Origin: Streptomyces sp. R33
GTDB taxonomy: Bacteria > Actinomycetota > Actinomycetes > Streptomycetales > Streptomycetaceae
Length of the DNA: 64,000 nt
Direction: 5' to 3'
NCBI RefSeq assembly: GCF_041200175.1
Contig: NZ_CP165727.1
Location: 1,426,001-1,490,000, forward strand
A program made the translations under genes and the position numbers. The notes beneath the pieces are model-generated. The model did not search any database, had not been told where the DNA came from, and was given only the letters and a program-made list of their open reading frames with translations. Below, in pieces: positions 12,635-27,691 of the stretch. The stretch's first letter is position 1, and each line of letters opens with the position of its first letter.

Positions 12635-12903
12635 CAGCGCCCCCCGGCGTCGAATTGCTCCATGTGCGCGACCGCGTACCCCGCGTGTGTACCCCGCACC
12701 GCGGCAGGCCAGTCACTCGCCGCATCCGTCACGGACGCCACCGCTATACCGTCCCTTCTGCGCCACCCGCAAGGCTTCAGCGGGAAAATCCTTGATGACG
12801 CACTAGACTGGCCGGTTGTTTGGCGCTGGACCGGAACAACCCGGGCAAACCTGGGCTCCGCCAGCGACCCGGACCTCCTTCCGGGACCGAGACGCGAGGG
12901 CCG

Positions 12904-15900: not shown

Positions 15901-16809
15901 GGCGGCTGGATGCGGATCGGCCACTCCCAGATCGGCCGCCGGGCGTTCCTCGGCAACTCCGGCATGACCGCGCCGGGCCGCACCGTACCGGACGACGGGC
16001 TGGTCGGCGTGCTGTCGGCGACCCCGAAGAAGGCCAAGAAGGGCAGTTCGTACCTGGGCCTGCCGCCGGTCCGGCTGCCGCGGTCCGCGGCCGACGCCGA
16101 CCAGAGCCGGACGTACGACCCGCCCGCGCGGCTGCTGTGGGCGCGCGGGCTGGTGGAGCTGTGCCGGATGATCCCGGTGTTCTGCTCGGCCGCGCTGGCC
16201 GTCCTGACCGTGGCGGCGCTCTGCGCGCTGGGCACGGCGAGCCGGCTCGGGACCTGGGAAGCGGCGCTGCTGTCCGGAGTGGTGCTGCTGAGCGCCGGTG
16301 TGGCCGCGGGCGCGGTGTCCGTGGCCGCGAAGTGGCTGCTCGTGGGCCGGCACCGGGCGGGCGAGCACCCGCTGTGGAGCAGCTTCGTATGGCGCAACGA
16401 GCTGGCCGACACCTTCGTCGAGGTGCTGGCCGTGCCGTGGCTGGCCGGTCCGGTGCCCGGGACCCCGCTGCTGAACCTGTGGCTGCGCGGGCTCGGGGCG
16501 CGGATCGGCCGGGGCGTGTGGTGCGAGAGCTACTGGCTGCCCGAGACGGACCTGGTGGTGCTGGGCGACGCGGTCAGCGTGAACCGTGGCTGCGTGTTGC
16601 AGACTCACCTCTTCCACGACCGGATCTTGAGGACGGATACTGTGGTCCTCCGTGAGGGCGCCACCCTGGGCCCGGGCGGAATCGTCCTGCCCGGAACCAC
16701 GGTCGGGGCCCACAGCACACTGGGTCCGGCCTCTCTCGTGATGGCCGGGGAATCCGTCCCCGCCGACACGCGTTGGCTGGGCAACCCGATCGAGGCATGG
16801 CGGACCTGA
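12904..16809 (+). CDS. Pls/PosA-type single-module poly-amino-acid synthetase
   Basis: A 1301-residue NRPS-like membrane protein with the architecture of epsilon-poly-L-lysine synthetase (about 1319 residues). An adenylation domain spans about residues 40-515, with A3 FTSGSTGKPKGVAVSHRS, A5 NTYGPTEAT and A10 lysine in TSGKVDRD. A carrier domain has phosphopantetheine Ser at about 551 in FAIGGSSLAA. From about residue 600, several membrane segments alternate with three left-handed beta-helix (hexapeptide) domains. My manual reading of the specificity residues is D-A-E-S-I-G-T-V-V-K. The acidic residue at the third position fits a cationic amino acid such as lysine. I chose the ATG at 12904; a TTG at 12820 is less likely. 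A short M1 peptidase follows. Confidence 0.88.
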   Translation: MAATPERGEMTLLDDGDPFDESGKSARFSAGPAAPTRTLVDIFEASVRACPDELALDDGTARLTYRALAAEVERRRRALEAAGVGLGDRVGVRVPSGTNELYAAILAVLAAGAAYVPVDAEDPDERAELVFAEAGVRAVLGAGGRIEATGPADAAVPAARPGPEHDAWVIFTSGSTGKPKGVAVSHRSAAAFVDAEAALFLSEEPIGPGDRVMAGLSVAFDASCEEMWLAWRYGACLVPVPRSQVRSGADLGPWLVDQEITVVSTVPTLAALWEPEALNEVRLLIFGGEACPPELTQRLVTEGREVWNTYGPTEATVVACASLLTGEEPIRIGLPLNGWELAVVDESGEPVPMGGSGQLVIGGVGLARYLDPEKDAEKYAPLESLGWERAYRSGDLVRAEPEGLVFLGRGDEQIKLGGRRIELGEVDAALQALPGVAGAAAAVRTARSGNQLLVGYLVAQEGWDHAAAVERLRAELPAALVPLLAPVEELPTRTSGKVDRDALPWPLPELETTGPAEQLYGTEAWLAEQWSETLGVAVTSAADDFFAIGGSSLAAAQLTTRLRTRYPRAAVLDIYQQPTLRKLARRLEKSVREDDAARTVAPVPLRTKVVQSLLLLPLFTLVGLRWTVALLALGNALHWFGAYPWAPTASWWLVVPGAALLFSPPGRLAIAAGGARLLLRGVKAGRYPRGGSVHLRLWTAERLAEYVGATSLTGSWLERYARALGAKIGPEVDLHSLPPVTGMLKLGRGSAVESEVDLCGHWLDGDRLEIGPVKVGAGAVVGTRSMLFPGARVGKRAEVAPGSAVVGQIPTGQRWAGAPAVKLGRAKRNWPKERPPRGLPWRAAYGAAGFGLTALPVLATVPALLVVSRFVPAGAGLVEALRGALIALVPGALAYGFTYALLLLVSVRLLSLGLRTGTHPTHSRVGWQAWTVTQLMDLSRETLFPLYAGLITPVWLRLLGMKIGRGAEVSTVLALPSLTTVGEGAFLADDTLTAPYELGGGWMRIGHSQIGRRAFLGNSGMTAPGRTVPDDGLVGVLSATPKKAKKGSSYLGLPPVRLPRSAADADQSRTYDPPARLLWARGLVELCRMIPVFCSAALAVLTVAALCALGTASRLGTWEAALLSGVVLLSAGVAAGAVSVAAKWLLVGRHRAGEHPLWSSFVWRNELADTFVEVLAVPWLAGPVPGTPLLNLWLRGLGARIGRGVWCESYWLPETDLVVLGDAVSVNRGCVLQTHLFHDRILRTDTVVLREGATLGPGGIVLPGTTVGAHSTLGPASLVMAGESVPADTRWLGNPIEAWRT

Positions 16810-16846: not shown

Positions 16847-18253
16847 ATGAGCGGCCAGAGAACAGCGGCATCGGACCCGTACTTCCCGGACAACGGCGAC
16901 TCCCGTTACCGCGTGCACCGGTACGAACTCGCTCTGGAGTACCGTCCCGGCCCCAACCGGCTGGCCGGGACGGCCCGGATCAGTGCGATCGCCGGGCGGG
17001 CGCCCCTGACCGAGTTCCACCTGAACCTGTCCGAGTTCAAGATAGGCCGGATCCTGGTGAACGGCCGGGCCCCGCACTACACCCACCGGGGCGGAAAGCT
17101 CCGCATCCGGCCGGCCAAGCCGCTGCCCGCCGGCGCCGCCTTCACGGTGGAGGTGCACTGGGCGGGCAATCCGAAGCCGGTCCGCAGCCCGTGGGGCGGT
17201 CTCGGCTGGGAGGAGCTGAGTGACGGCGCGCTGGTGGCCAGCCAGCCGGTCGGCGCGCCCTCCTGGTACCCGTGCAACGACCGGCCCGCTGACAAGGCCT
17301 CGTACCAGATCTCGGTCAACACCCCGTCCGCCTATACGGTGGTGGCCGGCGGCCGCCTGCTCACCCGGACGACGAAGGCCAGCACGACCACCTGGGTGTA
17401 CGAGCAGTCCGCGCCGACCTCCAGCTATCTGGTCGGGCTGTCCATCGGCATGTACCAGACGGTGCTGCTCGGCGACCCGGGTCTCGGCGGTGTCCCGCAG
17501 AGCGCCCACGTACCGGCACACCTGCTGCCGCAGTTCTCCCGCGACTTCGCCCGCCAGCCCGCCATGATGCAGTTGTTCGAGGAGCTGTTCGGGCCCTACC
17601 CGTTCGGCGAGTACGCGGTGGTCGTGGCCGACGAGGAACTCGACGTCCCGGTGGAGGCACAGGGGCTGTCCCTGTTCGGCGCCAACCACGTGGACGGCAG
17701 GCGCGGTTCGGAGCGCCTCGTCGCCCACGAGCTCGCGCACCAGTGGTTCGGCAACAGCGTGAGCATCGCCGACTGGCGGCACATCTGGCTGAACGAGGGC
17801 TTCGCGAAGTACGCCGAGTGGCTCTGGTCGGAGCGCTCCGGCGGCCGCACCGCACACGCGCTGGCCGCCGCCGCACACCGGCTGCTGGCCTCTCAGCCGC
17901 TGGATCTGCGTCTCGTCGACCCGGGCCGCAAGCTGATGTTCGACGACCGCCTGTACCAGCGCGGGGGTCTCGTCCTGCACGCGGTCCGCTGCGCCCTGGG
18001 GGACGGGGCGTTCTTCCGCATGCTCCGCGACTGGGCCACCGTGCACCGCCACGGCGTCGTGACCACCGCGGGCTTCACCCAGCACGTGGCCCGCTATGCG
18101 GGCGAGCCGCTGGACGACCTGTTCTCGGGCTGGCTGTACGAACCGGCCCTCCCGTCGCTGCCGTCGCCGCCCGCACGGCTGGCGACACCGGCGAAGCCGG
18201 CGTACCCGCCCACGAACGGCGGGGCCGCGCACCGCGGCCGGACCTCCGCCTGA
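16847..18253 (+). CDS. Short M1-family zinc metallopeptidase
   Basis: A 468-residue gluzincin that should cleave residues from peptide N-termini. The zinc site is complete: HELAH at residues 294-298 and the third ligand Glu at about 317 in LNEGFAKY. The N-terminal beta domain (YELALEYRPGPNRLAGTARI) and a WYPCNDRPADKASY block are typical of M1 enzymes. The protein lacks the large C-terminal helical domain of the usual 850-residue aminopeptidase N and has no signal peptide. It lies 37 bases after the Pls-type synthetase and is probably co-transcribed. In epsilon-polylysine producers, polymer-degrading zinc aminopeptidases are known, so it may trim or degrade the polymer. That role is inferred from context. 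Confidence 0.87.
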   Translation: MSGQRTAASDPYFPDNGDSRYRVHRYELALEYRPGPNRLAGTARISAIAGRAPLTEFHLNLSEFKIGRILVNGRAPHYTHRGGKLRIRPAKPLPAGAAFTVEVHWAGNPKPVRSPWGGLGWEELSDGALVASQPVGAPSWYPCNDRPADKASYQISVNTPSAYTVVAGGRLLTRTTKASTTTWVYEQSAPTSSYLVGLSIGMYQTVLLGDPGLGGVPQSAHVPAHLLPQFSRDFARQPAMMQLFEELFGPYPFGEYAVVVADEELDVPVEAQGLSLFGANHVDGRRGSERLVAHELAHQWFGNSVSIADWRHIWLNEGFAKYAEWLWSERSGGRTAHALAAAAHRLLASQPLDLRLVDPGRKLMFDDRLYQRGGLVLHAVRCALGDGAFFRMLRDWATVHRHGVVTTAGFTQHVARYAGEPLDDLFSGWLYEPALPSLPSPPARLATPAKPAYPPTNGGAAHRGRTSA

Positions 18254-18260
18254 CGCGGGT

Positions 18261-18294
18261 CCGGCCCTGCGCCGCGGGTGCGGCGCAGGGCCGG
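18261..18294. terminator. Bidirectional terminator hairpin
   Basis: A perfect 15-bp stem (18261-18275 with 18280-18294) with a GGGT loop sits eight bases after the M1 peptidase stop. On the other side it lies 20 bases beyond the end of the convergent six-gene operon, so it should terminate both transcripts and marks the operon boundary. Confidence 0.85.
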
Positions 18295-18313
18295 TTCGCC
18301 CCGTCGCTGCCGG

Positions 18314-18781
18314 TCAGCCGGCTGCCTTGCGCATGTGCGCCTCGGCGCGCTGGTCGAACTCCTCCGGGGGCACGTCCTCGATGTGGGTGGCTATCGTCCA
18401 CCGGTGGCCGAACGGGTCGATGACCTGCCCCGCCCGGTCGCCGAAGAAGTGGTCCTGGACTTCTCGCTGCTGCTTCGCGCCGGCCCGCAGGGCACGGGCG
18501 AAGGTGGCGTCGACGTCCTCGACGAACAGGTACAGCGTGACCGGGGTACCGCCGACGGAGTGGGGGCCGAGCAGGCCGGCTTCCCGCAGCTCGTCGGACA
18601 GCATCACGATCGTGCCGCCGATCCGGATCTGTGCGTGCATGATCTTGCCGTTGGGAGCGGTGGAGCGGGCCAGTTCCTTCGCACCGAAGGCCTCGGTGTA
18701 GAAGTCGATCGCCTCGCTCGCCCCGTCGACGGACAGGTAGGCCGTCAGCTCCGCGTACCCGTCCGGGATTGCTTTGACCAT
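18314..18781 (-). CDS. VOC (glyoxalase/bleomycin-resistance, PhnB-like) protein
   Basis: A 155-residue vicinal oxygen chelate fold protein of the PhnB-like branch. The paired beta-alpha-beta-beta-beta modules are visible as AYLSVDGASEAIDFYTEAFGA (first), the HAQIRIGGTIVMLSD strand pair, LYLFVEDVDATFARALRAGA (second) and the closing FGDRAGQVIDPFGHRW. Family members bind metal-chelated substrates or sequester toxic ligands. The start is the ATG at 18781, preceded by GAGGTCAAGA. It is the last gene of the operon, 22 bases after the HisC-like aminotransferase, so it may act in the pathway or protect the producer. The exact substrate is unknown. Confidence 0.82.
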   Translation of the reverse strand: MVKAIPDGYAELTAYLSVDGASEAIDFYTEAFGAKELARSTAPNGKIMHAQIRIGGTIVMLSDELREAGLLGPHSVGGTPVTLYLFVEDVDATFARALRAGAKQQREVQDHFFGDRAGQVIDPFGHRWTIATHIEDVPPEEFDQRAEAHMRKAAG

Positions 18782-18803
18782 TCTTGACCTCCGTGATCTT
18801 CGA

Positions 18804-19868
18804 TTACTTGCGGGTGGTGAGCTCGTCGAGTGCGTCGAGGAAGCTGCGCAGCTCCTCCTCCGTACCGAGCGATACGCGCAGGTGGCCGGGGAAACCGAAC
18901 AGGCCCGTGTCCCGCACGAGAATCCCGTACTCCTTGGCCAGGGCGTCCTGAGCCTCCCGGGAGGCGTCGACCCGGACGGCAACGAAGTTCGTCACCGACG
19001 GCAGGTACCGGTACCCGCGCCGCTCCAGCTCCGCGGTGAACCACTCGCGCCGCTGCGCGGTGCCCGTGCGGATCTCGCCGAGGAACTCCTGGTCGGCGAG
19101 TGCGGCCAGGGCGCCGGCCTGTGCGACGCGGTTGACGCTGAACGGAAGGACGTTCAGCGTCCGGCGGACCTCGGCGATGAGATCGGCCCGGCCGACGGCA
19201 TACCCGATCCGCAGGGCCGCCAGCCCGTACGCCTTGGAGAAGGTGCGCAGCGCCACCACCGGGGCGCCGCGGTCGAGGAAGTCCCTCGTCTGCGGCAGGC
19301 CCGGGTCGCTGAACTCCTGGTACGCCTCGTCGAAGACCAGCGGTACCCCGGCGGCCTGCGCGGCGTCGATCAAAGTGGCGTACGCCTCCTCATGAAGCGC
19401 GGTTCCGGAGGGGTTGTGCGGATTGCACACGTACCCGATGCCGTGCTCGGGCAGCGCGTCCGCGAACTCCTTGACGTCGAGGGCGCCGTCCCGCAGGGGG
19501 AGGGCCACGGCCCCTCGGCCGATGCGTTCCAGGGATTCCGGGTAGCCGGGGAACGTACCGGCGGCGACCAGACCGGGCCGCGAGAGGTCGCCGAGCGTCA
19601 GCGCGGTCGCCAGCACCAGCTCGTCGCTGCCGTTGGCCACGGCGATCTGGTCCTCGGACACGCCCCAGTGCCCGGCGAGGGCCTTGACGAGGCCCTCCCG
19701 CTGCGGCGCGGGGTAGCGGTTGACCCGTCCCAGTGCTCCGGCGGCCGCGGCGACGGCCGCCGGGCTCGCCCCGTAGGGGCTCTCGCTCAGGTGCAACCGC
19801 ACCATCGTGTCCGCATCCGGCACGCTGGTGTTGTAGACCTTCGGCTCCGGCCGGGCGGGCGCACTCAC
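18804..19868 (-). CDS. HisC-like PLP-dependent aminotransferase
   Basis: A 354-residue fold-type I aminotransferase resembling histidinol-phosphate aminotransferases. The landmarks are LHLSESPYGASP (substrate loop), VANGSDELV, CNPHNPSGT (PLP ring contact), FDEAYQEFSD with the PLP Asp and Tyr, and the Schiff-base Lys in RTFSKAYGLAALRIGY. The GTG start at 19868 overlaps the stop of the cupin gene by four bases. Its position in a biosynthetic operon, away from any his genes, suggests a specialised role: transamination between an aromatic or imidazole amino acid and its 2-oxo acid. The substrate is inferred, not shown. Confidence 0.87.
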   Translation of the reverse strand: MSAPARPEPKVYNTSVPDADTMVRLHLSESPYGASPAAVAAAAGALGRVNRYPAPQREGLVKALAGHWGVSEDQIAVANGSDELVLATALTLGDLSRPGLVAAGTFPGYPESLERIGRGAVALPLRDGALDVKEFADALPEHGIGYVCNPHNPSGTALHEEAYATLIDAAQAAGVPLVFDEAYQEFSDPGLPQTRDFLDRGAPVVALRTFSKAYGLAALRIGYAVGRADLIAEVRRTLNVLPFSVNRVAQAGALAALADQEFLGEIRTGTAQRREWFTAELERRGYRYLPSVTNFVAVRVDASREAQDALAKEYGILVRDTGLFGFPGHLRVSLGTEEELRSFLDALDELTTRK

Positions 19869-20245
19869 AGCCGGGATCCCAACAGGATCCCGAAGCAGTA
19901 ACTGCCCACCACTGCTTCCTTGGTGACGAAGCAGTGCTCGCTGCCCGCCGGGATGCGCATCACGGCCGGCGAGGTCAGTTCGTGAAGGACCCCGTCGAGA
20001 TGGACCTCGATGCGCGCCTGGCCGGGGAGCGGCGAGACGAGGAAGTAGATCTCGTCGACCTCGTGGGTGTGCGGTGCGGCCACCGGCTTGTCCACGAGCG
20101 TGCTGAGCTCACCGCCCGCAATCTGCACCGGCATCCCGCCGAACATGTCCGCCGTGAGGTAGAAGGGCGCGGGCTGGTGGTGCCCCGCCACCGCGAGCGG
20201 GATGGGAAGGTCGGAGACGATCTCGGGGGCGGCTGTGCGGCTCAC
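19865..20245 (-). CDS. Small cupin-domain protein
   Basis: A 126-residue single-domain cupin. The metal-binding motif is present: HTHEVDEIYFL supplies two His and a Glu, and the His in AGSEHCFV supplies the fourth ligand. Such cupins act as small dioxygenases, isomerases or epimerases, or bind small molecules. It starts at GTG 20245, overlapping the methyltransferase stop (GTGA), and its own stop overlaps the aminotransferase start. This tight coupling implies a defined stoichiometric role in the pathway. I cannot say which reaction it performs. Confidence 0.8.
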   Translation of the reverse strand: MSRTAAPEIVSDLPIPLAVAGHHQPAPFYLTADMFGGMPVQIAGGELSTLVDKPVAAPHTHEVDEIYFLVSPLPGQARIEVHLDGVLHELTSPAVMRIPAGSEHCFVTKEAVVGSYCFGILLGSRL

Positions 20246-21279
20246 GCTGCCTCCAGCACGAAGAGATAGGTGTGCGGCGCACCGAAGGGCACCGCGCGTC
20301 GCAGATGCATGCCTCCCTTGTCGAAGAGTTCCTCGTACTGCTCGCGCGTGTAGATGGGGACGCCCATCAGGGCGTGGGCCAGTTCGAACCCGCTGGAGAA
20401 CACCGGCAGCGTGCTCTCGCCGCCCCGCGGCCGCACCGTGGTGTCGCCCAGCAGGAACGTGTTGGCCTTGGGGAAGGCCGCACGCAGCCGGGGGATCACC
20501 TCGTCGCGGCGGGTCGGGTCGACCAGCAGGTCGTGCAGGAACATGAAGCTCATCACGACGTCGGCCTCGTCGGCGCCCTCGACCCGCTGCCCGTTGAACA
20601 GGATGTCGAGTACGTCCGCGCACACCGGCTCGACGGTGCCCTTGAGGCCGTACCGGTCGACGGTGTCGGCCCCGAGTTCGGTGGCGGACTTGCTGATGTC
20701 GATACCGAGTCCGCGGCTTCCCGGGCGGGCCTTGACCAGCCGGGAGACCCGCTCGCTGACGCCGGCGCCGAGGTCGACGAGGGTCGTGAAGTCGAGCCTG
20801 GAGATCTCGTCGTCCAGGATGTGCCGCATGAGGGCGGTGTCCGCCTGCGCCGAGCCGAGGGCCACCATCCCCTCGTCGCGGTGGAGGTCGACGCCGAAGC
20901 GGCGCTCCCCGCGGGCGACGGAGGCGGCGTTCGCGAACACGTCGTGGTAGCCGCCGACGCCCCAGGTGAAGAAGCCCAGCTTCTGGCGGGCCTCCTCACC
21001 GGTCCGGGTCGCCCGGACGCGGTCGCCGTGCGCCTCGACGTACCCGAAGGACTCCGCGGCGCGGATCAGGGAGCGGAAGACGGCCTCGTCCAGGCCGTTC
21101 TCCCGGCAGAACGGGGCCACGTCGGCGGAGCCGTCGTCCTGCAGTGTGCGGAACAGGCCGAGGCGCTCCAGTGCGTGCAGCACGTGCGCGCAGATGAAGC
21201 CGTTGAAAGCGGTGTCGGGGTTCAGTGGCGTCGGCGCCTCGCCGAGCCATTGTGCGGTCGATGTGTCTACCGGCGGCAT
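20242..21279 (-). CDS. SAM-dependent methyltransferase (O-methyltransferase-like)
   Basis: A 345-residue class I methyltransferase. Residues 20-110 form a helical winged-helix-like domain (FNGFICAHVLHALERLGLFRTL and FRSLIRAAESFGYVE) like the dimerisation domain of small-molecule O- and N-methyltransferases. The SAM-binding fold begins at LVDLGAGVSERVSRL (motif I), with GLGIDISKSA as the acidic loop and VVMSFMFLHDL as motif IV. The ATG start at 21279 lies 67 bases after the FAD oxidase stop and the gene overlaps the cupin gene. It probably methylates an O, N or carboxyl group of the pathway product. Confidence 0.84.
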   Translation of the reverse strand: MPPVDTSTAQWLGEAPTPLNPDTAFNGFICAHVLHALERLGLFRTLQDDGSADVAPFCRENGLDEAVFRSLIRAAESFGYVEAHGDRVRATRTGEEARQKLGFFTWGVGGYHDVFANAASVARGERRFGVDLHRDEGMVALGSAQADTALMRHILDDEISRLDFTTLVDLGAGVSERVSRLVKARPGSRGLGIDISKSATELGADTVDRYGLKGTVEPVCADVLDILFNGQRVEGADEADVVMSFMFLHDLLVDPTRRDEVIPRLRAAFPKANTFLLGDTTVRPRGGESTLPVFSSGFELAHALMGVPIYTREQYEELFDKGGMHLRRAVPFGAPHTYLFVLEAA

Positions 21280-21346
21280 CGTCTACACCTCTCGGAAATG
21301 CGGCGGGCGGGCCGTGGGGGCGCCGCCCGCCGCGAGACTGACCTGG

Positions 21347-22474
21347 TCAGAAGGCCTCGAGCCGGGCCAGGTTGAGGCCCAGCGAGTACGGGGTGAGATC
21401 GACGTTCGGGTTGTGGCCGAGGTAGAGGTCACGGATGATCTGGCCGGCGAGGGGTGCCTGTGCCAGTCCGTGGCCGGTGAAGCCGGCGGCGAAGAGGACC
21501 CGCTCGTGCTTGCCGGTGCCCTTGCCGATGATGGCCGACTTCGTCGGCGTGACGTCCAGACTTCCGGTCCACGCGCTGTAGAGCTTGACGCCCTCGAGCT
21601 CCGGGTACCACTTCGGCAGCTCGTCGACGGCCGCCTGGTACCAGATGTCCCGCAGCCCGTCCTGCTTGGAGATGCGCTCCAGGCCGACGAGGAAGGCCTT
21701 GCCCATGCCCATCGTCTTCAGCCCCGACACGGGGTGGAAGGTGAACGGCAGGTTGTGCACGTCACGGTCGGTGCGGATCGCGTCGGAGTGCAGCAGCTCG
21801 GCGAACTGCCCCCACACCGGCAGGTCCAGGCCGGCCAGCTTGGCGACGTCGCCGCTCAGCGGTCCGGCCGCGATGACGATCGACTGGGCGGTGAAGTCGC
21901 CCGCCGTCGTGCTGACCACGCCGCTGTCGCTGTCCAGCCCGGTCACGGCGACGTTGGAGAAGAGTCGTGCTCCGTGCCGCCTCGCGCCCTCGACGTAGCC
22001 CTGGACGATCGCCTCCGGCTTGATGCGGTAGGTGGCCGGGTTCCAGACCGCGGCCTCGATCGTGTCGGGGTCCAGCCAGGGGTTGAGCTCGACCGCCTGC
22101 GCGGCGGTGACCATTTCGACGGCCGCTCCGGCCTCGCGGTGGTCCGCCAGGTCCGCTTCCAGCTCGGCCACCTGCTGCGGGCTGGTCAGGATCGTCAGCA
22201 GGCCCAGGTTCTCCAGCCCGAGGTCGACGCCCATGGTCTCGGAGAACTGCTTGTACTCGGCGAGGCTGCGCGTCGCCATCTCGGAGTCGTGCGGCTTGCG
22301 GGGGAAATAGGTACGGAATGCGCGCGCGGTCTGCGAAGTGGTCGCGGCACCGAACTGGTTCTTCTCCACGAGGACGACGTCGATGCCCGCCTTCGCCGCG
22401 TGGTAGGCGATGGAAGTGCCGATCACCCCTCCGCCGATGACCAGCATTTCCGCCGTGTTCTTCTGCTCAGACAT
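21347..22474 (-). CDS. FAD-dependent amine/amino acid oxidase (DAO family), intact copy
   Basis: A 375-residue flavoprotein of the D-amino acid oxidase/glycine oxidase/sarcosine oxidase family. The Rossmann motif GGGVIG is at residues 14-19, the ribose-binding Glu at 37 (VLVEK), the second motif is in SIVIAAGPLSG, and the C-terminal FAD contact is in VLFAAGFTGHGLAQAP. It would oxidise a secondary or primary amine to an imine. The ATG at 22474 overlaps the upstream cucumopine-synthase-like gene by eight bases and has GAGGAGC as Shine-Dalgarno. It may oxidise or aromatise the ring product of that enzyme. A degenerate paralogue lies at 23732-24835. Confidence 0.87.
   Translation of the reverse strand: MSEQKNTAEMLVIGGGVIGTSIAYHAAKAGIDVVLVEKNQFGAATTSQTARAFRTYFPRKPHDSEMATRSLAEYKQFSETMGVDLGLENLGLLTILTSPQQVAELEADLADHREAGAAVEMVTAAQAVELNPWLDPDTIEAAVWNPATYRIKPEAIVQGYVEGARRHGARLFSNVAVTGLDSDSGVVSTTAGDFTAQSIVIAAGPLSGDVAKLAGLDLPVWGQFAELLHSDAIRTDRDVHNLPFTFHPVSGLKTMGMGKAFLVGLERISKQDGLRDIWYQAAVDELPKWYPELEGVKLYSAWTGSLDVTPTKSAIIGKGTGKHERVLFAAGFTGHGLAQAPLAGQIIRDLYLGHNPNVDLTPYSLGLNLARLEAF
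22442..22474 (-). repeat. Duplicated oxidase 5' end, copy A
   Basis: The first 33 bases of the intact oxidase match the first 33 bases of its paralogue (24803-24835) at 32 positions, although the rest has diverged. This fits either recent duplication or local gene conversion. Confidence 0.85.
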
Positions 22475-23432
22475 TCGTGCTCCTCGCAACGTTCGGACGG
22501 TAGGTCCATTCGTCTCCCGTGAGATCCCACGGGAACAGCTGCAGATTCCACGCACCGAGGGCGTTGACGTACGTCGCCATCTGCGCCATCAGAGCGACGA
22601 ATTCTTCCCGGGTGGTGATGACGTCGAGTGCGGCCACCACCTCCTTGGTGATGTCCCAGAGGGTGTTCATTCCGCAGTAGCCCAGGAACTCGGTGGGCTT
22701 CACCAGCAGGATCTTGGCCAGCTCGACCAGCGACGGGAACGGCATGTCGATCTTCCGGCCGGCCCGCACCAGGGTGGTGTAGTTCACGTAACCGAGCGGC
22801 CGCGTCTCGCCGTTCACGGCGACCAGGGTCGTGAGGACCGAGTTCTTCGTCCCGGCGCCGGAGGTGCCCCGCGACTTGCCCTCGTGGATGTCCACCAGCT
22901 CGTCGGTCGGGTCGACCAGCACCCGCTCGGTCTCCGCGGCGATCTTCTCGATCAGCTCGCGGACCAGCTCGGACTCGGCGGCGAGCCGCTGCACGCCCTG
23001 GCCGGCCGGCCCGTCCACCCGGCGCACGTGGGCGATCACGGGCACGCCGTTGCCGTGGACGGATTCCCAGACCAGCTGACCGATCTTCGGCAGCATGTCG
23101 ACGTCCTCCGGCACGACGTGGCCGATCGGCGAGGTCGGCATCGGCTCGGTGAGCTCGCCGTACTTGATGGTCAGGTGCTGCACGGGGGAAAGGAACACCG
23201 TGCCATTGGGCTGGATCTTGCGATTCACCTTGTAATCCGGAACCGCGTGCAGCAAGTCGTGCGCCGGCGGCACGTGGTACATGCAATCGCCGGCCACGAG
23301 CGCATGCCCCTGGAGGGTGGTGTACGGCAGAGCCGCCCACAACGGCTCCACAAGTTCGGCGTTGCGCCCCTCGAGGAGGGTGACGCGAACCTTGGCGCCG
23401 ATCGGCTCCCAGGAAATCTCGATTTGCCGCAT
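22467..23432 (-). CDS. Cucumopine synthase-like (cyclophilin-like/DUF3830 plus helical bundle) protein
   Basis: A 321-residue protein. Residues 1-145 look like a cyclophilin-like DUF3830 domain: a Lys/Arg beta strand IEISWEPIGAKVRVTLLEG, a short helix ELVEPLWAALP, then VAGDCMYHVPP and later PVQHLTIKYGEL and MPTSPIGHV. The rest is mostly helical, including LAKILLVKPTEFLGYCGMNT and VALMAQMATYVNALG, like the helical-bundle domain of cucumopine synthase relatives. Cucumopine synthase joins histidine and 2-oxoglutarate in a Pictet-Spengler-type cyclisation. The assignment is from remembered family features, so moderate. It is the first gene of the operon, with AGGAGC before the ATG at 23432. Confidence 0.58.
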   Translation of the reverse strand: MRQIEISWEPIGAKVRVTLLEGRNAELVEPLWAALPYTTLQGHALVAGDCMYHVPPAHDLLHAVPDYKVNRKIQPNGTVFLSPVQHLTIKYGELTEPMPTSPIGHVVPEDVDMLPKIGQLVWESVHGNGVPVIAHVRRVDGPAGQGVQRLAAESELVRELIEKIAAETERVLVDPTDELVDIHEGKSRGTSGAGTKNSVLTTLVAVNGETRPLGYVNYTTLVRAGRKIDMPFPSLVELAKILLVKPTEFLGYCGMNTLWDITKEVVAALDVITTREEFVALMAQMATYVNALGAWNLQLFPWDLTGDEWTYRPNVARSTNV

Positions 23433-23466
23433 TGTGCTCCTACCTCTAATCGCGGTTGGAATACGA

Positions 23467-23490
23467 GCGACGGCCACGCTGCCGTCGCAA
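23467..23490 (-). repeat. 24-base hairpin element, copy 1
   Basis: Arms GCGACGGC (23467-23474) and GCCGTCGC (23481-23488) flank a 6-base loop. The whole 24-base word recurs in inverted orientation at 27609-27632, loop included. Here it lies 35 bases upstream of the first gene of the operon. Confidence 0.85.
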
Positions 23491-23638
23491 ATCGAATATA
23501 CGAATGGCGACATTCGATCGGCCGACAGGGGGCGCTTTTCTGTCACATTGCCGATTCCCTGTCACTTCGCACGACCCCGCCGATTCCCGGGAATTCGGAA
23601 TTCCGATTCCAGAAATGCAGAATTCCCGGATTCTCGTG

Positions 23639-23683
23639 AAAAACACATGGCCGCCGCACTGTGGACAGTGCGGCGGCCATGTG
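23639..23683 (-). terminator. Intrinsic terminator with T tract
   Basis: A perfect 17-bp stem (23644-23660 with 23667-23683) is followed on the minus strand by TTTTT (23639-23643), a classical rho-independent terminator and rare in such GC-rich DNA. It ends the transcript of the degenerate FAD oxidase and insulates the next operon. Confidence 0.9.
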
Positions 23684-23731
23684 GGCGCAGACCCCGGGCC
23701 GGCAGCGGCACGGGGGTGAAGTCCTGGCGGA

Positions 23732-24835
23732 TCAGGCCCCGTTGCGGGCGAGCGAGAACGGCGTGATGTCGACGCCGGGGTGCCGGCCGAGGTGGAGGTC
23801 CCGAATGATCTTGCCGGTGGCGGGTGCCTGGCCGAGTTCGTGACCGGTGAAGCCGGCGGCGAACAGGATGCGTTCGTGCGGGCCGCCCGCCCTGCCGATC
23901 AGGGCGCTCCTGGAGGGCGTGACGTCGAGGGTTCCGGTCCATGCGCTGTGCAGCGTGACGTCCCGCAGGCGCGGGTACCGCTGCGCCACCCCGTCCATGG
24001 CCGCCTCGTGCCAGATGTCGCGCATGCCCGGCTTCCGGGAGAAGCGTTCGAGGCCCACCAGGAAGGACGGCCCCATCCCCATCGTCTTCAGTCCGGCCGC
24101 GGGGTGGAAGGTGAACGGCGACGCGACGTCGCCGTCGCCTATCGGGTCGGTGTGGAACAGTTCGGCGAACTGGCCCCACACGGGGAGCTCGAAGCCGGCC
24201 AGCGCGGCGATGTCACCGCTGCCGGACTCGTCCGCGAGAACGATCGCCTCCGCGGTGAAATCACCGGCCGTGGTGGCGACCCGGCCGCCGGACGCGTCCA
24301 GCCCCGTCACGGTGGCGCCGGTGACCAGGCGCGCGCCGTGCTTCTGCGCGCCTTCGGTGTAGCCCCGGAGCACCTCGTCCGCCCTGAGGCGGATCATCTG
24401 CGGGCACCAGAGCGCCGCTTCGACACCGGCCGGGTCCAGCCAGGGATTGCGCTCGACGGCCTGCGCCGCGGTCAGCAGCTCCAGCTGCACACCGGCATCC
24501 CGCTGGGCGGGCACCTCCGCCAGCAGCTCGGCCGCCTCGTCCGCGCTGGCCGCCACCACGAGCATCCCGGTCTGCGTCACCTCGAGTTCGGCGCCGGTGG
24601 TGGCACCGAACGAACGGAAATCGGCCAGGCTGCGCGCGACCAGTTCGGAGTCGTACACGCGCCCGGGAAAATAGGTGCGGAAAGCGCCTGCGGTCTGTGT
24701 CGCGGTGGCACCGGGCTGATCCCGTCCCAGCACGACGACGTCGACGCCCGCTTCCGCGCAGTGGTATGCAACGGACATCGCGATCACTCCGGTACCGATG
24801 ACCAGCAATTCCGCCGTGTTCTTCTGCTCAGACAT
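23732..24835 (-). CDS. Degenerate paralogue of the FAD-dependent oxidase
   Basis: A 367-residue paralogue of the oxidase at 21347-22474, alike over the whole length and starting with the same nine residues (MSEQKNTAE). The FAD-binding signature is damaged: residues 14-19 read GTGVIA instead of GGGVIG, the ribose-binding Glu37 is Gly (VLGRD), and the second-motif IAAGP is replaced by LADES. The C-terminal FAAGFTGHELGQAP block is kept. The reading frame is intact, so it may be a non-catalytic partner, a binding protein or a relaxed duplicate. It starts at ATG 24835 and ends in a strong terminator, separating it from the main operon. Confidence 0.8.
   Translation of the reverse strand: MSEQKNTAELLVIGTGVIAMSVAYHCAEAGVDVVVLGRDQPGATATQTAGAFRTYFPGRVYDSELVARSLADFRSFGATTGAELEVTQTGMLVVAASADEAAELLAEVPAQRDAGVQLELLTAAQAVERNPWLDPAGVEAALWCPQMIRLRADEVLRGYTEGAQKHGARLVTGATVTGLDASGGRVATTAGDFTAEAIVLADESGSGDIAALAGFELPVWGQFAELFHTDPIGDGDVASPFTFHPAAGLKTMGMGPSFLVGLERFSRKPGMRDIWHEAAMDGVAQRYPRLRDVTLHSAWTGTLDVTPSRSALIGRAGGPHERILFAAGFTGHELGQAPATGKIIRDLHLGRHPGVDITPFSLARNGA
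24803..24835 (-). repeat. Duplicated oxidase 5' end, copy B
   Basis: Partner of the copy at 22442-22474, with a single mismatch over 33 bases. Confidence 0.85.
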
Positions 24836-25009
24836 CCGCAATCTCCGTAACGTGGCCTGCCCGCGTCGGCCCGGAATTCGAACAGCCGAGTATGCCGAGT
24901 GGTGGTGTGGCCGACGGAGTGCAGCATGGAAGCCGACGCGGAGCCGTACGGGGAAAATGGCGCGGGTCTGTCAGGTCAACGGGCCGCCCCTCCCCCGAGT
25001 TGACGAACA

Positions 25010-25048
25010 GTCCGCCTCTTCGTCGGCTGCTGCGCCGAAGAGGCGGAC
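25010..25048 (-). terminator. Hairpin after the RHH-VOC unit
   Basis: A perfect 13-bp stem (25010-25022 with 25036-25048) and a 13-base loop lie just beyond the end of the VOC gene at 25080. It should end the RHH-VOC transcript. The remaining bases up to 24836 must then hold the promoter of the FAD-oxidase paralogue. Confidence 0.75.
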
Positions 25049-25079
25049 CATGTCGCACATGAGGACAGCTGCCCCGCAC

Positions 25080-25424
25080 CTACTTCTTGAGCGGCGCCTG
25101 GAGGCTCCAGACGCGCCCGTCGGGGTCGCGCACCTTCATCTCCTGCGTTCCGTAGTGGGTCTCCTCGAACGGCGTGACCACCTCGACGGACGGGTCGACC
25201 GCGAACTCGCCGGCGTCCCCCACCCGCAGGACGACCTGGAAGTCGGGCTTCTGGTCCTCGGGGATCTCGGCGAGCAGCAGGTAGGGGCCGTCCCCGTTGC
25301 GGAGCATCCCCGAGCCCTCCTCGGTCGCGAACTCGACGTTGTAGCCCAGCGACTGGAAGAACTTGGCCGCCTTGCCCCAGTTATGGGTCTCGAGGTACAC
25401 GCCTTCGACGCCTTCGGTGCTCAT
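25080..25424 (-). CDS. VOC family protein
   Basis: A 114-residue vicinal oxygen chelate protein. It begins with [22 protein letters not shown] (first module), has [11 protein letters not shown], and ends in [20 protein letters not shown], the usual closing strand. Single-chain VOC proteins of this size often dimerise and bind a metal or a small aromatic or peptide ligand, as in bleomycin-binding proteins. Its ATG (25424) overlaps the stop of the tiny ribbon-helix-helix gene. Close to a divergent drug-type exporter, it may be a resistance or ligand-binding protein, but a catalytic role in the pathway is equally possible. Confidence 0.82.
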
Positions 25425-25591
25425 GCCTGCTTTCCTTTCCGCGGTTCCTGCTCGTGGACGGCGAGATACGTGCGCAACGCCTCGGCGACCAGGGCCGAGA
25501 GCGACGACTCGTTCTCGATTGCATGGTGCTTGATCTGCCGGATGAGTTCCACCGGCAAGTAGACGTTGAACTGCTTTACTTCTGCACGCAT
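25421..25591 (-). CDS. Ribbon-helix-helix (CopG/Arc-type) regulator, 56 aa
   Basis: A small gene of 57 codons from ATG 25591 to the TGA overlapping the VOC start (ATGA). The product has the ribbon-helix-helix pattern: a strand [11 protein letters not shown], helix [11 protein letters not shown], a turn ENESS, and helix [15 protein letters not shown], then a basic tail. Such proteins bind DNA as dimers at palindromes. One lies only four bases upstream (25596-25609). No usual Shine-Dalgarno is present; a TAGCAT at -12 to -7 suggests leaderless transcription. It probably represses its own operon and the divergent exporter. An antitoxin is the alternative, but no toxin gene is adjacent. Confidence 0.8.
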
Positions 25592-25595
25592 ACTA

Positions 25596-25609
25596 GGATG
25601 CTAGCATCC
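25596..25609. promoter_or_regulatory. 14-bp palindromic operator candidate with embedded -10
   Basis: GGATGCTAGCATCC is a perfect palindrome in the 79-base gap between the RHH gene and the divergent exporter. On the minus strand it contains TAGCAT located at -12 to -7 of the RHH start codon. It is a natural site for autorepression. Confidence 0.65.
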
Positions 25610-25670
25610 GTCCGCTCGTCCAACTAGGGCCGATCGAACAAGAGTTACGAACCGAGGAGGAATCCCAACA

Positions 25671-27242
25671 ATGAAACGCCAATGGTGGACGCTGCTGGTG
25701 GTGTGCGCCGCCACGTTCATGCTGCTGCTGGACGTCACGATCGTCGCGGTCGCGCTCCCCGACATCCAGCACTCGCTGGACGCGAGCTTCAGCGGCCTGC
25801 AATGGACGACGGATGCCTACGCGTTAAGCCTGGCGGCGCTCCTGCTCACCTCGGGCTCCCTGGCCGACCTGTACGGCAGGCGGCGCCTGTTCGTCATCGG
25901 ACTGGCGGTCTTCACCGCAGGATCGCTGCTGTGCGGCATCGCGCAGGACCAGCTGATGCTGATCCTGTCCCGCGCGGTGCAGGGAATCGGCGGCGCGATC
26001 CTGTTCGCCACCTCCCTGGCGCTGCTCGCCGGCACGTTCCAGGGCAGGGAGCGGGGCTCGGCCTTCGGCATCTGGGGCGCCGTCGCCGGTGTCGCCACCG
26101 CGCTCGGCCCGGTGCTCGGCGGTGTGATCACCAGCGGGATCAGCTGGCGCGGCATCTTCCTGGTGAACCTGCCGATCGGCATCGCCGCGATCTTCATCAC
26201 GCTGCGCCTCGTCGACGAGTCCCGTCCGCCGCGCGCCTCCAAGATCGACTGGCTGGGCATCGTGCCGCTCACGGCGGGCTTGTTCAGCCTGGTGTACGCC
26301 CTCATCAGGGCGAGCGACACGGCATGGGGCGAGCAGGGCGTGCTGATCTGCTTCGGTCTGGCAGCGGTGTTCCTCGTGGCGTTCGCGGTGATCGAATCGC
26401 GTGTTTCCGAGCCGATGTTCGACCTGAAGCTGCTGCGCACCCCGACCTTCCTGGGCGGCTCGATCGCCGCCTTCGCCATGAACGCCTCCCTGTTCGCGAT
26501 GTTCATCTACCTCGTGCTGTACCTGCAGAACGACCTCGGCTACAGCGCGATGGGCACCGGCGCCCGGCTCCTGGTGAGCTCCGGCTGCACGCTCGTCGCC
26601 GCCATGGCGGCCGGCCGCCTCATGAGCAAGGTCCCGACCCGGTGGCTGATCGGCCCCGGCCTGGTCATCGTGGGCATCGGCCTCCTGCTCATGACGGGGG
26701 TCTCCGCCGACTCCGACTGGACCCACCTCATCCCGGGCTTCATCGTCACGGGCATCGGGGCCGGCATGGTCAACCCGCCGCTGGCCTCCACCGCGATCGG
26801 TGTCGTCCCGGTGTGGCGCGCCGGAATGGCGTCCGGCGTGAACCAGACCTTCCGGCAGGTGGGCATCGCCGTCGGCATCGCCGTGTACGGCTCGCTCTTC
26901 ACCGCGTCGCTGCACGACGCCCTGAGGGAGCGGCTCGCGAACATCCCGGCACTGCAGGGGCAGAGCGATCAGATCGCCGACTCCATCCGCATGGGCTCTC
27001 CCGGGCAGGCGATCGCCTCGGCCCCGGCGGAGTTCCGGGGAGAGGTCCAGCACGCGGTCCAGGCCGGCTTCGCCACGTCGATGAACGACCTGCTGGTCGC
27101 GAGCGGCATCGTGGCGCTGGTCGGCGGCGTCCTGGCGTTCGCCCTCATCCGCAGCAAGGACTTCGTCGCCCCCCAGGGCGGCCCCGGCCAGCAGGCCCGG
27201 CCGCCCCAGGCCCAGAACACGGAGGCCCCGCAACCGCGCTGA
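25671..27242 (+). CDS. MFS drug exporter, DHA2 (EmrB/QacA) type
   Basis: A 523-residue proton-driven exporter with about fourteen membrane segments. Motif A is GSLADLYGRRRLFVIG, motif C is GPVLGGVITSGISWRGIFLVNLP-like near residues 145-170, and motif D1 is seen as LDVTIVAVALPDIQ in helix 1. A GAGGAGG Shine-Dalgarno precedes the ATG. The gene is divergent from the RHH-VOC unit, with the palindrome between them, so it is likely controlled by the RHH protein and exports the product of the neighbouring pathway. The C-terminal tail is Pro/Gln-rich and cytoplasmic. Confidence 0.9.
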   Translation: MKRQWWTLLVVCAATFMLLLDVTIVAVALPDIQHSLDASFSGLQWTTDAYALSLAALLLTSGSLADLYGRRRLFVIGLAVFTAGSLLCGIAQDQLMLILSRAVQGIGGAILFATSLALLAGTFQGRERGSAFGIWGAVAGVATALGPVLGGVITSGISWRGIFLVNLPIGIAAIFITLRLVDESRPPRASKIDWLGIVPLTAGLFSLVYALIRASDTAWGEQGVLICFGLAAVFLVAFAVIESRVSEPMFDLKLLRTPTFLGGSIAAFAMNASLFAMFIYLVLYLQNDLGYSAMGTGARLLVSSGCTLVAAMAAGRLMSKVPTRWLIGPGLVIVGIGLLLMTGVSADSDWTHLIPGFIVTGIGAGMVNPPLASTAIGVVPVWRAGMASGVNQTFRQVGIAVGIAVYGSLFTASLHDALRERLANIPALQGQSDQIADSIRMGSPGQAIASAPAEFRGEVQHAVQAGFATSMNDLLVASGIVALVGGVLAFALIRSKDFVAPQGGPGQQARPPQAQNTEAPQPR

Positions 27243-27252
27243 CCACCCCGGC

Positions 27253-27291
27253 GCCCGTCAGCCCCGGCCCCGCACGCCGGCACTGACGGGC
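27253..27291 (+). terminator. Hairpin after the exporter
   Basis: Nine-bp arms (27253-27261 with 27283-27291, GCCCGTCAG/CTGACGGGC) begin 10 bases after the exporter stop. It is a probable terminator, with moderate stem strength and a 21-base GC-rich loop. Confidence 0.6.
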
Positions 27292-27304
27292 CCCCGCGGC
27301 CGGG

Positions 27305-27691
27305 TCAGGTCCGGCGCGAACGGCCCGGGAAGTGGGCGCCGGCCGCGGGCAGGTACAGCGGGACCACGGCGGCGGCCGTGAGCAGGTCGGGGACGGCGGC
27401 CAGGACCGGCCAGGCGCCGGGCCACAGCCCGTCCATGCCGAGGTCGGTGGCCACGAAGAGCAGGGATCCGGCGCCGGCGATCGCGAGGACCGTACGGGCC
27501 CAGCCGCGGCCCGCCCGCATCCTCACCCCCACGGCAAGCCAGGCCGCCAGGGCCACGGTCAGGACCTCGCCCGACAGGGCGAGTTGGCGCGCGGCGCCGT
27601 CGGCTCCTTGCGACGGCAGCGTGGCCGTCGCAACTGCGCGCCTCCTGCGTGTCCGCCCTCTGAGAGGGAGAACGGGCCCGCCCGGTTCCAC
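27305..27691 (-). pseudogene. Membrane protein remnant or doubtful ORF
   Basis: The frame could encode 128 residues. The last 90 look like a real Streptomyces membrane protein: LTVALAAWLAVGVRM, VLAIAGAGSLLFVAT, and a third helix VPDLLTAAAVVPLYLP with charged residues between. The first 40 residues are Arg/Pro-rich and do not look native, no start codon has a good Shine-Dalgarno, and the hairpin element copy 2 lies inside the proposed N-terminal part. I read it as the 3' remnant of a longer gene that lost its start, but a small real gene cannot be excluded. Confidence 0.4.
27609..27632 (+). repeat. 24-base hairpin element, copy 2
   Basis: Exact inverted copy of the element at 23467-23490. Here the palindromic arms extend to ten bases (TTGCGACGGC at 27609-27618, GCCGTCGCAA at 27625-27634). 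Confidence 0.85.

What the first reader, a model, noticed from the sequence alone, without database searches (positions are those of the whole stretch)
18314..27242. Candidate new opine-like biosynthetic cluster built on a cucumopine synthase-like enzyme
Seen: a tightly packed minus-strand operon (starts at 23432, ends at 18314; overlaps of 8 and 4 bases) encodes a DUF3830/cyclophilin-like protein with a helical bundle, an FAD amine oxidase, a SAM methyltransferase, a cupin, a HisC-like aminotransferase and a VOC protein. Adjacent are an FAD oxidase paralogue, a second VOC protein, a ribbon-helix-helix regulator and a divergent 14-TM exporter. Known: cucumopine synthase makes a ring from histidine and 2-oxoglutarate by a Pictet-Spengler-type step; DAO-family oxidases act on amines; HisC-type enzymes handle imidazole or aromatic amino acids. 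Inference: the operon makes a cyclised amino acid (imidazo- or other fused pyridine type), oxidised and methylated, then exported. I do not recall a described cluster with this gene set.
Basis: partly seen in the sequence, partly recalled or inferred. Interest (0 to 1): 0.82.

Follow-up and report, generated by a model that had tools for sequence, protein, structure and literature searches.

The report
Stand-alone methyl-β-carboline alkaloid gene cluster
A 9-kb Streptomyces gene cluster carries relatives of the tryptophan-processing genes of the streptonigrin antibiotic pathway, without the second set of genes that lies beside them in several other bacteria, and is predicted to make a simpler methylated β-carboline alkaloid rather than the opine-like compound first suggested.

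Summary
The operon is real and at the stated coordinates, but it is not opine-like. The 22467-23432 product carries the Cucumopine_C domain; its best solved relative by sequence (6.7e-71) and fold (TM 0.85/0.88) is McbB, a tryptophan Pictet-Spenglerase. The DUF3830 label fails. Methyltransferase, cupin and aminotransferase stand in the order of stnQ1-stnK3-stnR, which makes (2S,3S)-β-methyltryptophan. A DAO-family flavoenzyme directly follows the Pictet-Spenglerase in 74 of 79 named loci. The six-gene block recurs in 10 of those 79; in 6 of the 10, streptonigrin-type aminoquinone genes (stnM-like) lie nearby, which the window lacks. Predicted chemistry: L-Trp to β-methyl-Trp, ring closure with an aldehyde (likely a sugar phosphate), flavin oxidation, export: a 4-methyl-β-carboline. 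The genome holds stnM-, stnK1- and stnL-like genes about 2.9 Mb away, but relatives without a Pictet-Spenglerase hold such genes too, so a split streptonigrin-type pathway is possible but unsupported. The second flavoenzyme has lost the canonical FAD motif yet shows dN/dS of 0.17-0.37. New variant of a known kind; product untested.

The parts
22467..23432 (-). Pictet-Spenglerase of the McbB/StnK2 kind (cyclophilin-like N-terminal half + Cucumopine_C helical bundle); predicted to close the β-carboline ring
   Evidence: PF18631 3.5e-35; 3x27 McbB 6.7e-71; AF2 model mean pLDDT 82, TM 0.85/0.88 to McbB
21347..22474 (-). FAD1: DAO-family flavoenzyme, StnP2-like by position (not compared with StnP2 itself); predicted to oxidise the tetrahydro-β-carboline
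   Evidence: PF01266 1.3e-54; directly downstream of the Pictet-Spenglerase in 74 of 79 loci; GxGxxG and acid motif intact
20242..21279 (-). SAM methyltransferase, StnQ1/MarI-like by position; predicted β-methylation of indolepyruvate
   Evidence: nearest solved relative is MppJ methyltransferase, 1.2e-31; place in the stnQ1-stnK3-stnR order
19865..20245 (-). cupin, StnK3/MarH-like; predicted epimerase of β-methyl-indolepyruvate
   Evidence: PDB 7eqk 5.5e-67 and 6j4b 6e-65; that these are StnK3 and MarH is recalled
18804..19868 (-). PLP aminotransferase, StnR/MarG-like by position
   Evidence: PF00155 2e-51; hisC model below cut-off; best solved relative a putative phenylalanine aminotransferase
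18314..18781 (-). VOC1, glyoxalase/bleomycin-resistance-fold protein, last gene of the conserved block, role unknown
   Evidence: PF00903 2.7e-16; distant relative TioX 3itw, 4.2e-13; follows the aminotransferase in the 10 block loci
23732..24835 (-). FAD2: paralogue of FAD1 with degenerate FAD-binding motif, upstream of the operon and followed by a terminator-like hairpin
   Evidence: PF01266 2.8e-44; third Gly of GxGxxG replaced by Ala; dN/dS 0.17-0.37 in five pairs
23644..23683 (-). strong terminator-like hairpin after FAD2
   Evidence: 18-pair stem followed by T-rich tail; perfect 19-nt inverted repeat
25080..25424 (-). VOC2, small VOC-family protein; candidate product-binding/immunity protein (inferred)
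   Evidence: no Pfam match at E<=0.1; homologues named VOC family or glyoxalase/bleomycin resistance; weak matches to Zbm binding protein, E 0.014 and 0.024
25421..25591 (-). RHH/CopG-family protein; predicted regulator, StnY-like by family
   Evidence: PF01402 2.2e-06; StnY is a CopG-family regulator in the streptonigrin cluster (PMC10339500 passages)
25671..27242 (+). MFS exporter, DHA2/EmrB type; predicted product exporter
   Evidence: TIGR00711 4.6e-79, above cut-off

Best explanation
The operon encodes relatives of a tryptophan Pictet-Spenglerase (McbB kind), a DAO-family flavoenzyme and a methyltransferase-cupin-aminotransferase trio in the order of the set that makes (2S,3S)-β-methyltryptophan for streptonigrin, and is predicted to build a 4-methyl-β-carboline alkaloid from L-tryptophan and likely a sugar-phosphate aldehyde. 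Predicted steps (all inferred from homology): (1) the aminotransferase turns L-Trp into indolepyruvate; (2) the methyltransferase adds the β-methyl group; (3) the cupin inverts that centre; (4) the aminotransferase returns (2S,3S)-β-methyl-Trp; (5) the 22467-23432 enzyme condenses it with an aldehyde, most likely D-erythrose 4-phosphate as recalled for StnK2, to a 1-substituted 4-methyl-tetrahydro-β-carboline-3-carboxylate; (6) FAD1 oxidises the new ring towards the aromatic β-carboline; (7) the MFS protein exports it, with the RHH/VOC2 pair as regulator and possible immunity. The cluster would be a streptonigrin-type pathway reduced to its β-carboline half, so the product would be a small free 4-methyl-β-carboline (oxopropaline- or pyridindolol-like) rather than an aminoquinone.
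For: Pictet-Spenglerase: 3x27, 6.7e-71; model, TM 0.85/0.88 to McbB with tryptophan; KslB, also with tryptophan, matches over about 140 columns; R71, H86, E96 invariant in 24 of 24 aligned sequences, window included; one search aligns them with R, H, E of McbB. β-Methyl-Trp trio: searches (cupin; MppJ-type methyltransferase), gene order as in PMC4742848. Flavoenzyme coupling: (74 of 79). Block conservation: (10 of 79 named loci, three genera). Pyridindolol precedent of a StnK2-like plus StnP2-like pair: PMC7955054. Aminoquinone genes absent from the cluster but near 6 of the 10 blocks. Grouping with the stnM-bearing clusters L002/L003.
Against: No activity or metabolite data. The aldehyde partner is not encoded and is recalled, not shown; no phosphatase or carboxyl-reducing gene is present. 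In the Pictet-Spenglerase-only tree the node joining the window clade to L002/L003 has support of only 0.479, and 4 of the 10 blocks lack stnM2-like genes in the stretch held, so reduction rather than accretion is not proven. The stn proteins themselves were not held, so stn names rest on family, order and papers. FAD2's role is unexplained. The active-site residue roles are recalled.
Confidence: 0.8

Rival explanations
1. A two-locus streptonigrin/lavendamycin-type pathway: the β-carboline made here would be joined to an aminoquinone built by stnM1/M2/SDR/M3-, stnK1- and stnL-like genes about 2.9 Mb away in the same genome.
For: G000 holds stnM1-like (65% to the L005 gene), stnM2-like (63%), SDR- and stnM3-like genes in the same order at C1:4.411-4.415 Mb, and genes 69% and 73% identical to the stnK1- and stnL-like genes of the G259 cluster at about 4.380-4.383 Mb; G331, which also has the mini-cluster, has stnM- and stnL-like genes too.
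Against: G250 and G278 hold close orthologues (85-90%) of the stnL-like and stnM2-like genes 27-29 kb apart but no Pictet-Spenglerase match at E<=1e-20, so that locus stands alone there; stnM2-like genes occur in 190 of 392 Streptomyces genomes at E<=1e-60.
Confidence: 0.08
2. One reading: an opine-like cluster that condenses histidine (or another amino acid) with 2-oxoglutarate to an imidazo-fused pyridine.
For: The C-terminal domain is named after cucumopine synthase, and a relative, KslB, is solved with a product of 2-oxoglutarate (PDB titles).
Against: In those entries KslB's amino acid is tryptophan; the nearest relative is tryptophan-bound McbB; the operon carries the β-methyl-tryptophan trio.
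Confidence: 0.03
3. A decaying or non-productive remnant of a streptonigrin-type cluster, making at most β-methyl-Trp or a dead-end tetrahydro-β-carboline.
For: Lack of aminoquinone genes; degenerate FAD2 motif.
Against: All ten genes are open; dN/dS of the six block genes is 0.11-0.45 against L001 and L002; L001 keeps the same ten genes at 80-93% identity without the window's M1-peptidase and Pls neighbours; an exporter and a regulator are kept.
Confidence: 0.08

Closest known systems
Streptonigrin (stn) gene cluster, Streptomyces flocculus
   Same: Methyltransferase-cupin-aminotransferase in stnQ1-stnK3-stnR order, a Pictet-Spenglerase (StnK2 in stn), a StnP2-type flavoenzyme and a CopG/RHH protein (StnY in stn)
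   Different: No stnM1/M2/M3-, stnK1-, stnL-like or further methyltransferase, P450 or amidotransferase genes beside it; the stn sequence itself was not held, so the comparison runs through papers and the stn-like clusters L002-L007 and L079
McbB (marinacarboline Pictet-Spenglerase; PDB 3x27)
   Same: Fold and domain order; 41% identity in the structural alignment
   Different: McbB works on L-Trp with oxaloacetaldehyde and is reported to decarboxylate and oxidise by itself (PMC7024544 passages); here a flavoenzyme and a β-methyl-Trp trio are adjacent
Proposed pyridindolol cluster (Streptomyces sp. ID38640, PMC7955054)
   Same: Pictet-Spenglerase (49% to StnK2) next to a StnP2-like flavoenzyme (39%)
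   Different: It has AMP-ligase, aldehyde dehydrogenase, histidine phosphatase and F420-enzyme genes, and its table as far as read lists no β-methyl-Trp trio
Maremycin marG-marH-marI set
   Same: Aminotransferase, cupin epimerase and C-methyltransferase making (2S,3S)-β-methyl-Trp (PMC4742848)
   Different: I recall no Pictet-Spenglerase in that pathway; its products are diketopiperazines (PMC5454204, listing only)
KslB (PDB 9ns6, 9k0a and others)
   Same: Tryptophan Pictet-Spenglerase with the same two kinds of domain
   Different: Domains apparently in reversed order (query 4-138 aligns to chain 182-316), so only about 140 of 321 residues align at once

Membership tests
McbB/StnK2-type Pictet-Spenglerase | Cucumopine_C helical bundle behind a cyclophilin-like half, McbB fold | tested here: met
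   PF18631 3.5e-35; TM 0.85/0.88 to 3x27 over 304 columns
McbB/StnK2-type Pictet-Spenglerase | Active-site Arg72/His87/Glu97 of McbB (numbers and roles recalled) | tested here: met
   R71, H86, E96 align with R, H, E of McbB and are invariant in 24 of 24
McbB/StnK2-type Pictet-Spenglerase | Ring closure of L-Trp or β-methyl-Trp with an aldehyde | not testable with these tools
   needs purified enzyme
(2S,3S)-β-methyltryptophan set (stnQ1-stnK3-stnR, marI-marH-marG) | C-methyltransferase, cupin and PLP aminotransferase in this order on one strand | tested here: met
   order from PMC4742848
(2S,3S)-β-methyltryptophan set (stnQ1-stnK3-stnR, marI-marH-marG) | Forms (2S,3S)-β-methyl-Trp from L-Trp and SAM | not testable with these tools
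   needs assay
Streptonigrin/lavendamycin cluster | β-carboline block with stnK2/P2/Q1/K3/R-type genes | tested here: met
   by family, order and conserved block; not by comparison with the stn sequence
Streptonigrin/lavendamycin cluster | stnM1/M2/M3-, stnK1-, stnL-like aminoquinone genes beside the block | tested here: not met
   not among the ten genes; the copies found in the genome and read in 58-65 are about 2.9 Mb away (a further 66% stnL-family match lies at C1:4.200 Mb)
Pyridindolol-type cluster | Pictet-Spenglerase + StnP2-like flavoenzyme | tested here: met
Pyridindolol-type cluster | AMP-ligase, aldehyde dehydrogenase and histidine phosphatase beside it | tested here: not met
   one search covers all ten cluster genes; none is of these families
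Cucumopine/opine synthase | Histidine + 2-oxoglutarate specificity | not testable with these tools
   context argues for tryptophan; no direct test
DUF3830 | PF12903 match | tested here: not met
   no match at E<=0.1; 0 matches in the genome at E<=0.001

The most novel reading that the evidence does not exclude
The window holds the β-carboline half of a lavendamycin-type aminoquinone antibiotic whose other half is encoded by an older stand-alone locus about 2.9 Mb away: a pathway assembled in trans from two chromosomal clusters, with a flavin-degenerate FAD2 acting as a non-catalytic partner of FAD1.
Probability: 0.08. Interest if true: 0.72.

Novelty: new variant of a known kind. Interest (0 to 1): 0.42.

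Why it matters
If the prediction holds, this is a compact (10 genes, 9 kb) self-contained route to C4-methylated β-carbolines, useful to test which aldehyde this enzyme branch takes and what the flavoenzyme pair does, without the rest of the streptonigrin pathway. It also shows the streptonigrin-type β-carboline block both with and without aminoquinone genes beside it. stnM2-like genes were found in 190 of 392 Streptomyces genomes, so crosstalk between the two modules is a testable idea.

Tried and rejected
DUF3830 membership: rejected. Histidine opine: rejected as main reading. Split streptonigrin pathway: kept only as the novel case, because relatives without a Pictet-Spenglerase match hold the distant locus. 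Recent insertion shown by an empty site: looked for in five relatives; close orthologues of both flank genes exist in 2 of 5 (G331, G278) and lie on different contigs, so inconclusive. Identity of L004 (S. albus NRRL B-1811) with the streptonigrin cluster: its cupin is identical to PDB 7eqk over 131 residues, but G368, the same contig position, has no close stnM2-like gene (best 29%; a 58% stnM1-family match lies on another contig), so I do not call it the stn cluster. That 7eqk is StnK3 and 6j4b is MarH is recalled, not shown; one search found no paper naming those entries. Anti-phage role of RHH, VOC1 and VOC2: no PADLOC match. Oxopropaline as product: its structure is recalled; I saw its name, a mass-spectrometric mention and titles, not its structure.
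Full report
What is there. The window lies at C1:1426001-1490000 of a 9.1-Mb genome; the closest named relative found is Streptomyces katrae NRRL B-16271 (L010, 93-100% protein identity over the six block genes). The finding's genes are all present at the stated places: a six-gene minus-strand operon from 23432 to 18314, upstream FAD2 (24835-23732), VOC2 (25424-25080) and RHH (25591-25421), and a divergent DHA2/EmrB-type exporter (25671-27242). A perfect 19-nt inverted repeat with a T-rich tail at 23683-23644 separates FAD2 from the operon. The count of terminator-like sites in the region is not above shuffles (3 against a mean of 2.9), but this stem has 18 pairs against 6 and 5 for the others. 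The simple sigma-70 scan found no promoter.

The key enzyme. Pfam lists Cucumopine_C only; DUF3830 is not met. By sequence the nearest solved protein is 3x27 (6.7e-71), whose molecule name is 'cucumopine synthase' but whose title is 'Structure of McbB in complex with tryptophan'. The AlphaFold model (mean pLDDT 82.1, pTM 0.85; residues 192-213, 301-311 and 313-321 below 50) matches McbB at TM 0.85/0.88 over 304 columns; KslB, another tryptophan Pictet-Spenglerase, matches over about 140 columns, and the sequence match (query 4-138 on chain 182-316) indicates that its domains are in reversed order. R71, H86 and E96 align with R, H and E of McbB and are invariant in 24 of 24 aligned sequences, the window's included; that these are the catalytic residues is recalled.

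The β-methyltryptophan trio. The cupin matches 7eqk (5.5e-67) and 6j4b (6e-65), the methyltransferase matches MppJ (1.2e-31), the aminotransferase scores below the hisC cut-off. PMC4742848 (abstract and part 1 of 4 of the text read) describes stnQ1-stnK3-stnR, homologous to marI-marH-marG, as methyltransferase, cupin and aminotransferase, and shows that the stn enzymes make (2S,3S)-β-methyl-Trp.

Neighbourhoods. One scan of named genomes gave 79 loci with a relative of the Pictet-Spenglerase (96 stretches encode one, the best 80 were kept). In all 79: the full block PS-FAD1-MT-cupin-AT-VOC1 is in 10 (L001-L008, L010, L079; Streptomyces, Sciscionella, Mangrovihabitans); a DAO-family flavoenzyme lies within 400 bp downstream on the same strand in 74, elsewhere in 3 (L055, L062, L074), and was not found in 2 (L045, L066). 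In 6 of the 10 block loci (L002, L003, L005, L006, L007, L079) relatives of an isochorismatase and an SDR, and in 5 of these also of a class II DAHP synthase, lie in the stretch held (families tested in L005; shared by clustering); L001, L010, L004 and L008 show none there (L008 reaches its contig end 6.9 kb downstream). Anthranilate synthase, isochorismatase and DAHP synthase are StnM1, StnM2 and StnM3 in the streptonigrin cluster (PMC6265801, passages); I use these names by family and order, as the stn proteins were not held. In 392 Streptomyces genomes 30 have a Pictet-Spenglerase match at E<=1e-20, 7 of them, the window's own included, at 72% identity or more. An unrooted tree of the six concatenated proteins groups window+L010+L001 with L002+L003 (support 1.000); the Pictet-Spenglerase-only tree with outgroups gives that node only 0.479. 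I read the window cluster as a streptonigrin-type cluster reduced to its β-carboline half; this direction is likely, not proven.

The distant locus. The same genome has stnM1-like (65%), stnM2-like (63%), SDR- and stnM3-like genes at C1:4.411-4.415 Mb and stnK1/stnL-like genes (69% and 73% to the G259 cluster) at about 4.380-4.383 Mb. G331 (same contig position as L001) has stnM- and stnL-like genes as well. G250 and G278 have the stnL-like and stnM2-like genes at 85-90% identity 27-29 kb apart but are not among the 30 genomes with a Pictet-Spenglerase match. stnM2-like genes occur in 190 of 392 genomes at E<=1e-60; stnL-family genes in 268 of 392 at E<=1e-90, a loose count that likely includes ordinary family members. 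The locus therefore stands alone in some relatives, and a split pathway is only a possibility.

FAD2. FAD1 keeps GxGxxG and the following acid in 11 of 11 sequences (window and 10 loci); FAD2, present in the window and 9 of the 10 block loci (not in the stretch held of L004), has Ala for the third Gly in 9 of 10 (Gly in L008) and an acid in 5 of 10, by my reading of the alignments. Yet FAD2 dN/dS is 0.17-0.37 in five pairs. It is likely kept for something other than ordinary flavin catalysis, for example as a partner of FAD1; untested, and an Ala at that place does not by itself exclude flavin. In the table the 69 other loci show at most one DAO-type gene each.

Mechanism and product. The predicted route is in Best explanation. 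The D-erythrose 4-phosphate partner of StnK2 is recalled (the StnK2 paper was seen only as a citation in PMC7955054). PMC7955054 (passages and part 1 of 2 of section 6 read) proposes glyceraldehyde (phosphate) for pyridindolol and aromatisation by the FAD- and/or F420-dependent enzyme, with the same enzyme pair. A lavendamycin precursor carries a 4-methyl-β-carboline-3-carboxylate (title and start of abstract of PMC3120419 in the listings).

Literature position. Searches for cucumopine synthase, McbB/StnK2/KslB, methyltryptophan/streptonigrin/lavendamycin, streptonigrin clusters, lavendamycin clusters and methyl-β-carbolines listed no paper that I recognised as describing a stand-alone β-methyl-Trp plus Pictet-Spenglerase cluster. 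Four of these listings were capped (40 of 280, 40 of 197, 20 of 32, 20 of 33) and the library lacks most subscription journals, so this is weak evidence of novelty. Overall: a new variant of a known kind, moderately interesting.

Noticed in passing
window 12820-16809 and 16847-18253 (+): A Pls/PosA-family non-ribosomal peptide synthetase (TIGR02353, 844 bits) followed by an M1-family peptidase, directly beside the finding; present beside the cluster in L010 but not in the other nine block loci's stretches.
   Followed up: partly
L002:4987-6819, L003:5077-6834, L005:6560-8581, L006:6640-8592, L007:3245-7081, L079:6174-7397: An IS701-transposase-like protein (NF033540 above cut-off in L005; a relative by the distant locus, L116:1902-3056, also above it), in several cases behind a ParB-like stretch (by eye), is conserved beside the second flavoenzyme; where I recall a catalytic Asp pair in IS701 these six read RP or TP, so it may be a domesticated, inactive transposase serving as regulator.
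   Followed up: partly
window 21201-22400: FAD1 differs from S. katrae NRRL B-16271 more (91-95% DNA identity in 300-base steps) than the rest of 18201-27500 (96-100%), as if this stretch had been exchanged by recombination.
   Followed up: partly
L115:7356-9070: The distant stnM-like locus also carries an EPSP synthase gene and a gene with only a transketolase C-terminal domain, as if it boosted shikimate supply.
   Followed up: no
window 25080-25424: VOC2 is more alike (85-88%) to proteins of Streptosporangium and Nonomuraea than to that of the sister cluster L001 (81%), which hints at separate transfer of this gene or of the RHH-VOC2 pair.
   Followed up: no
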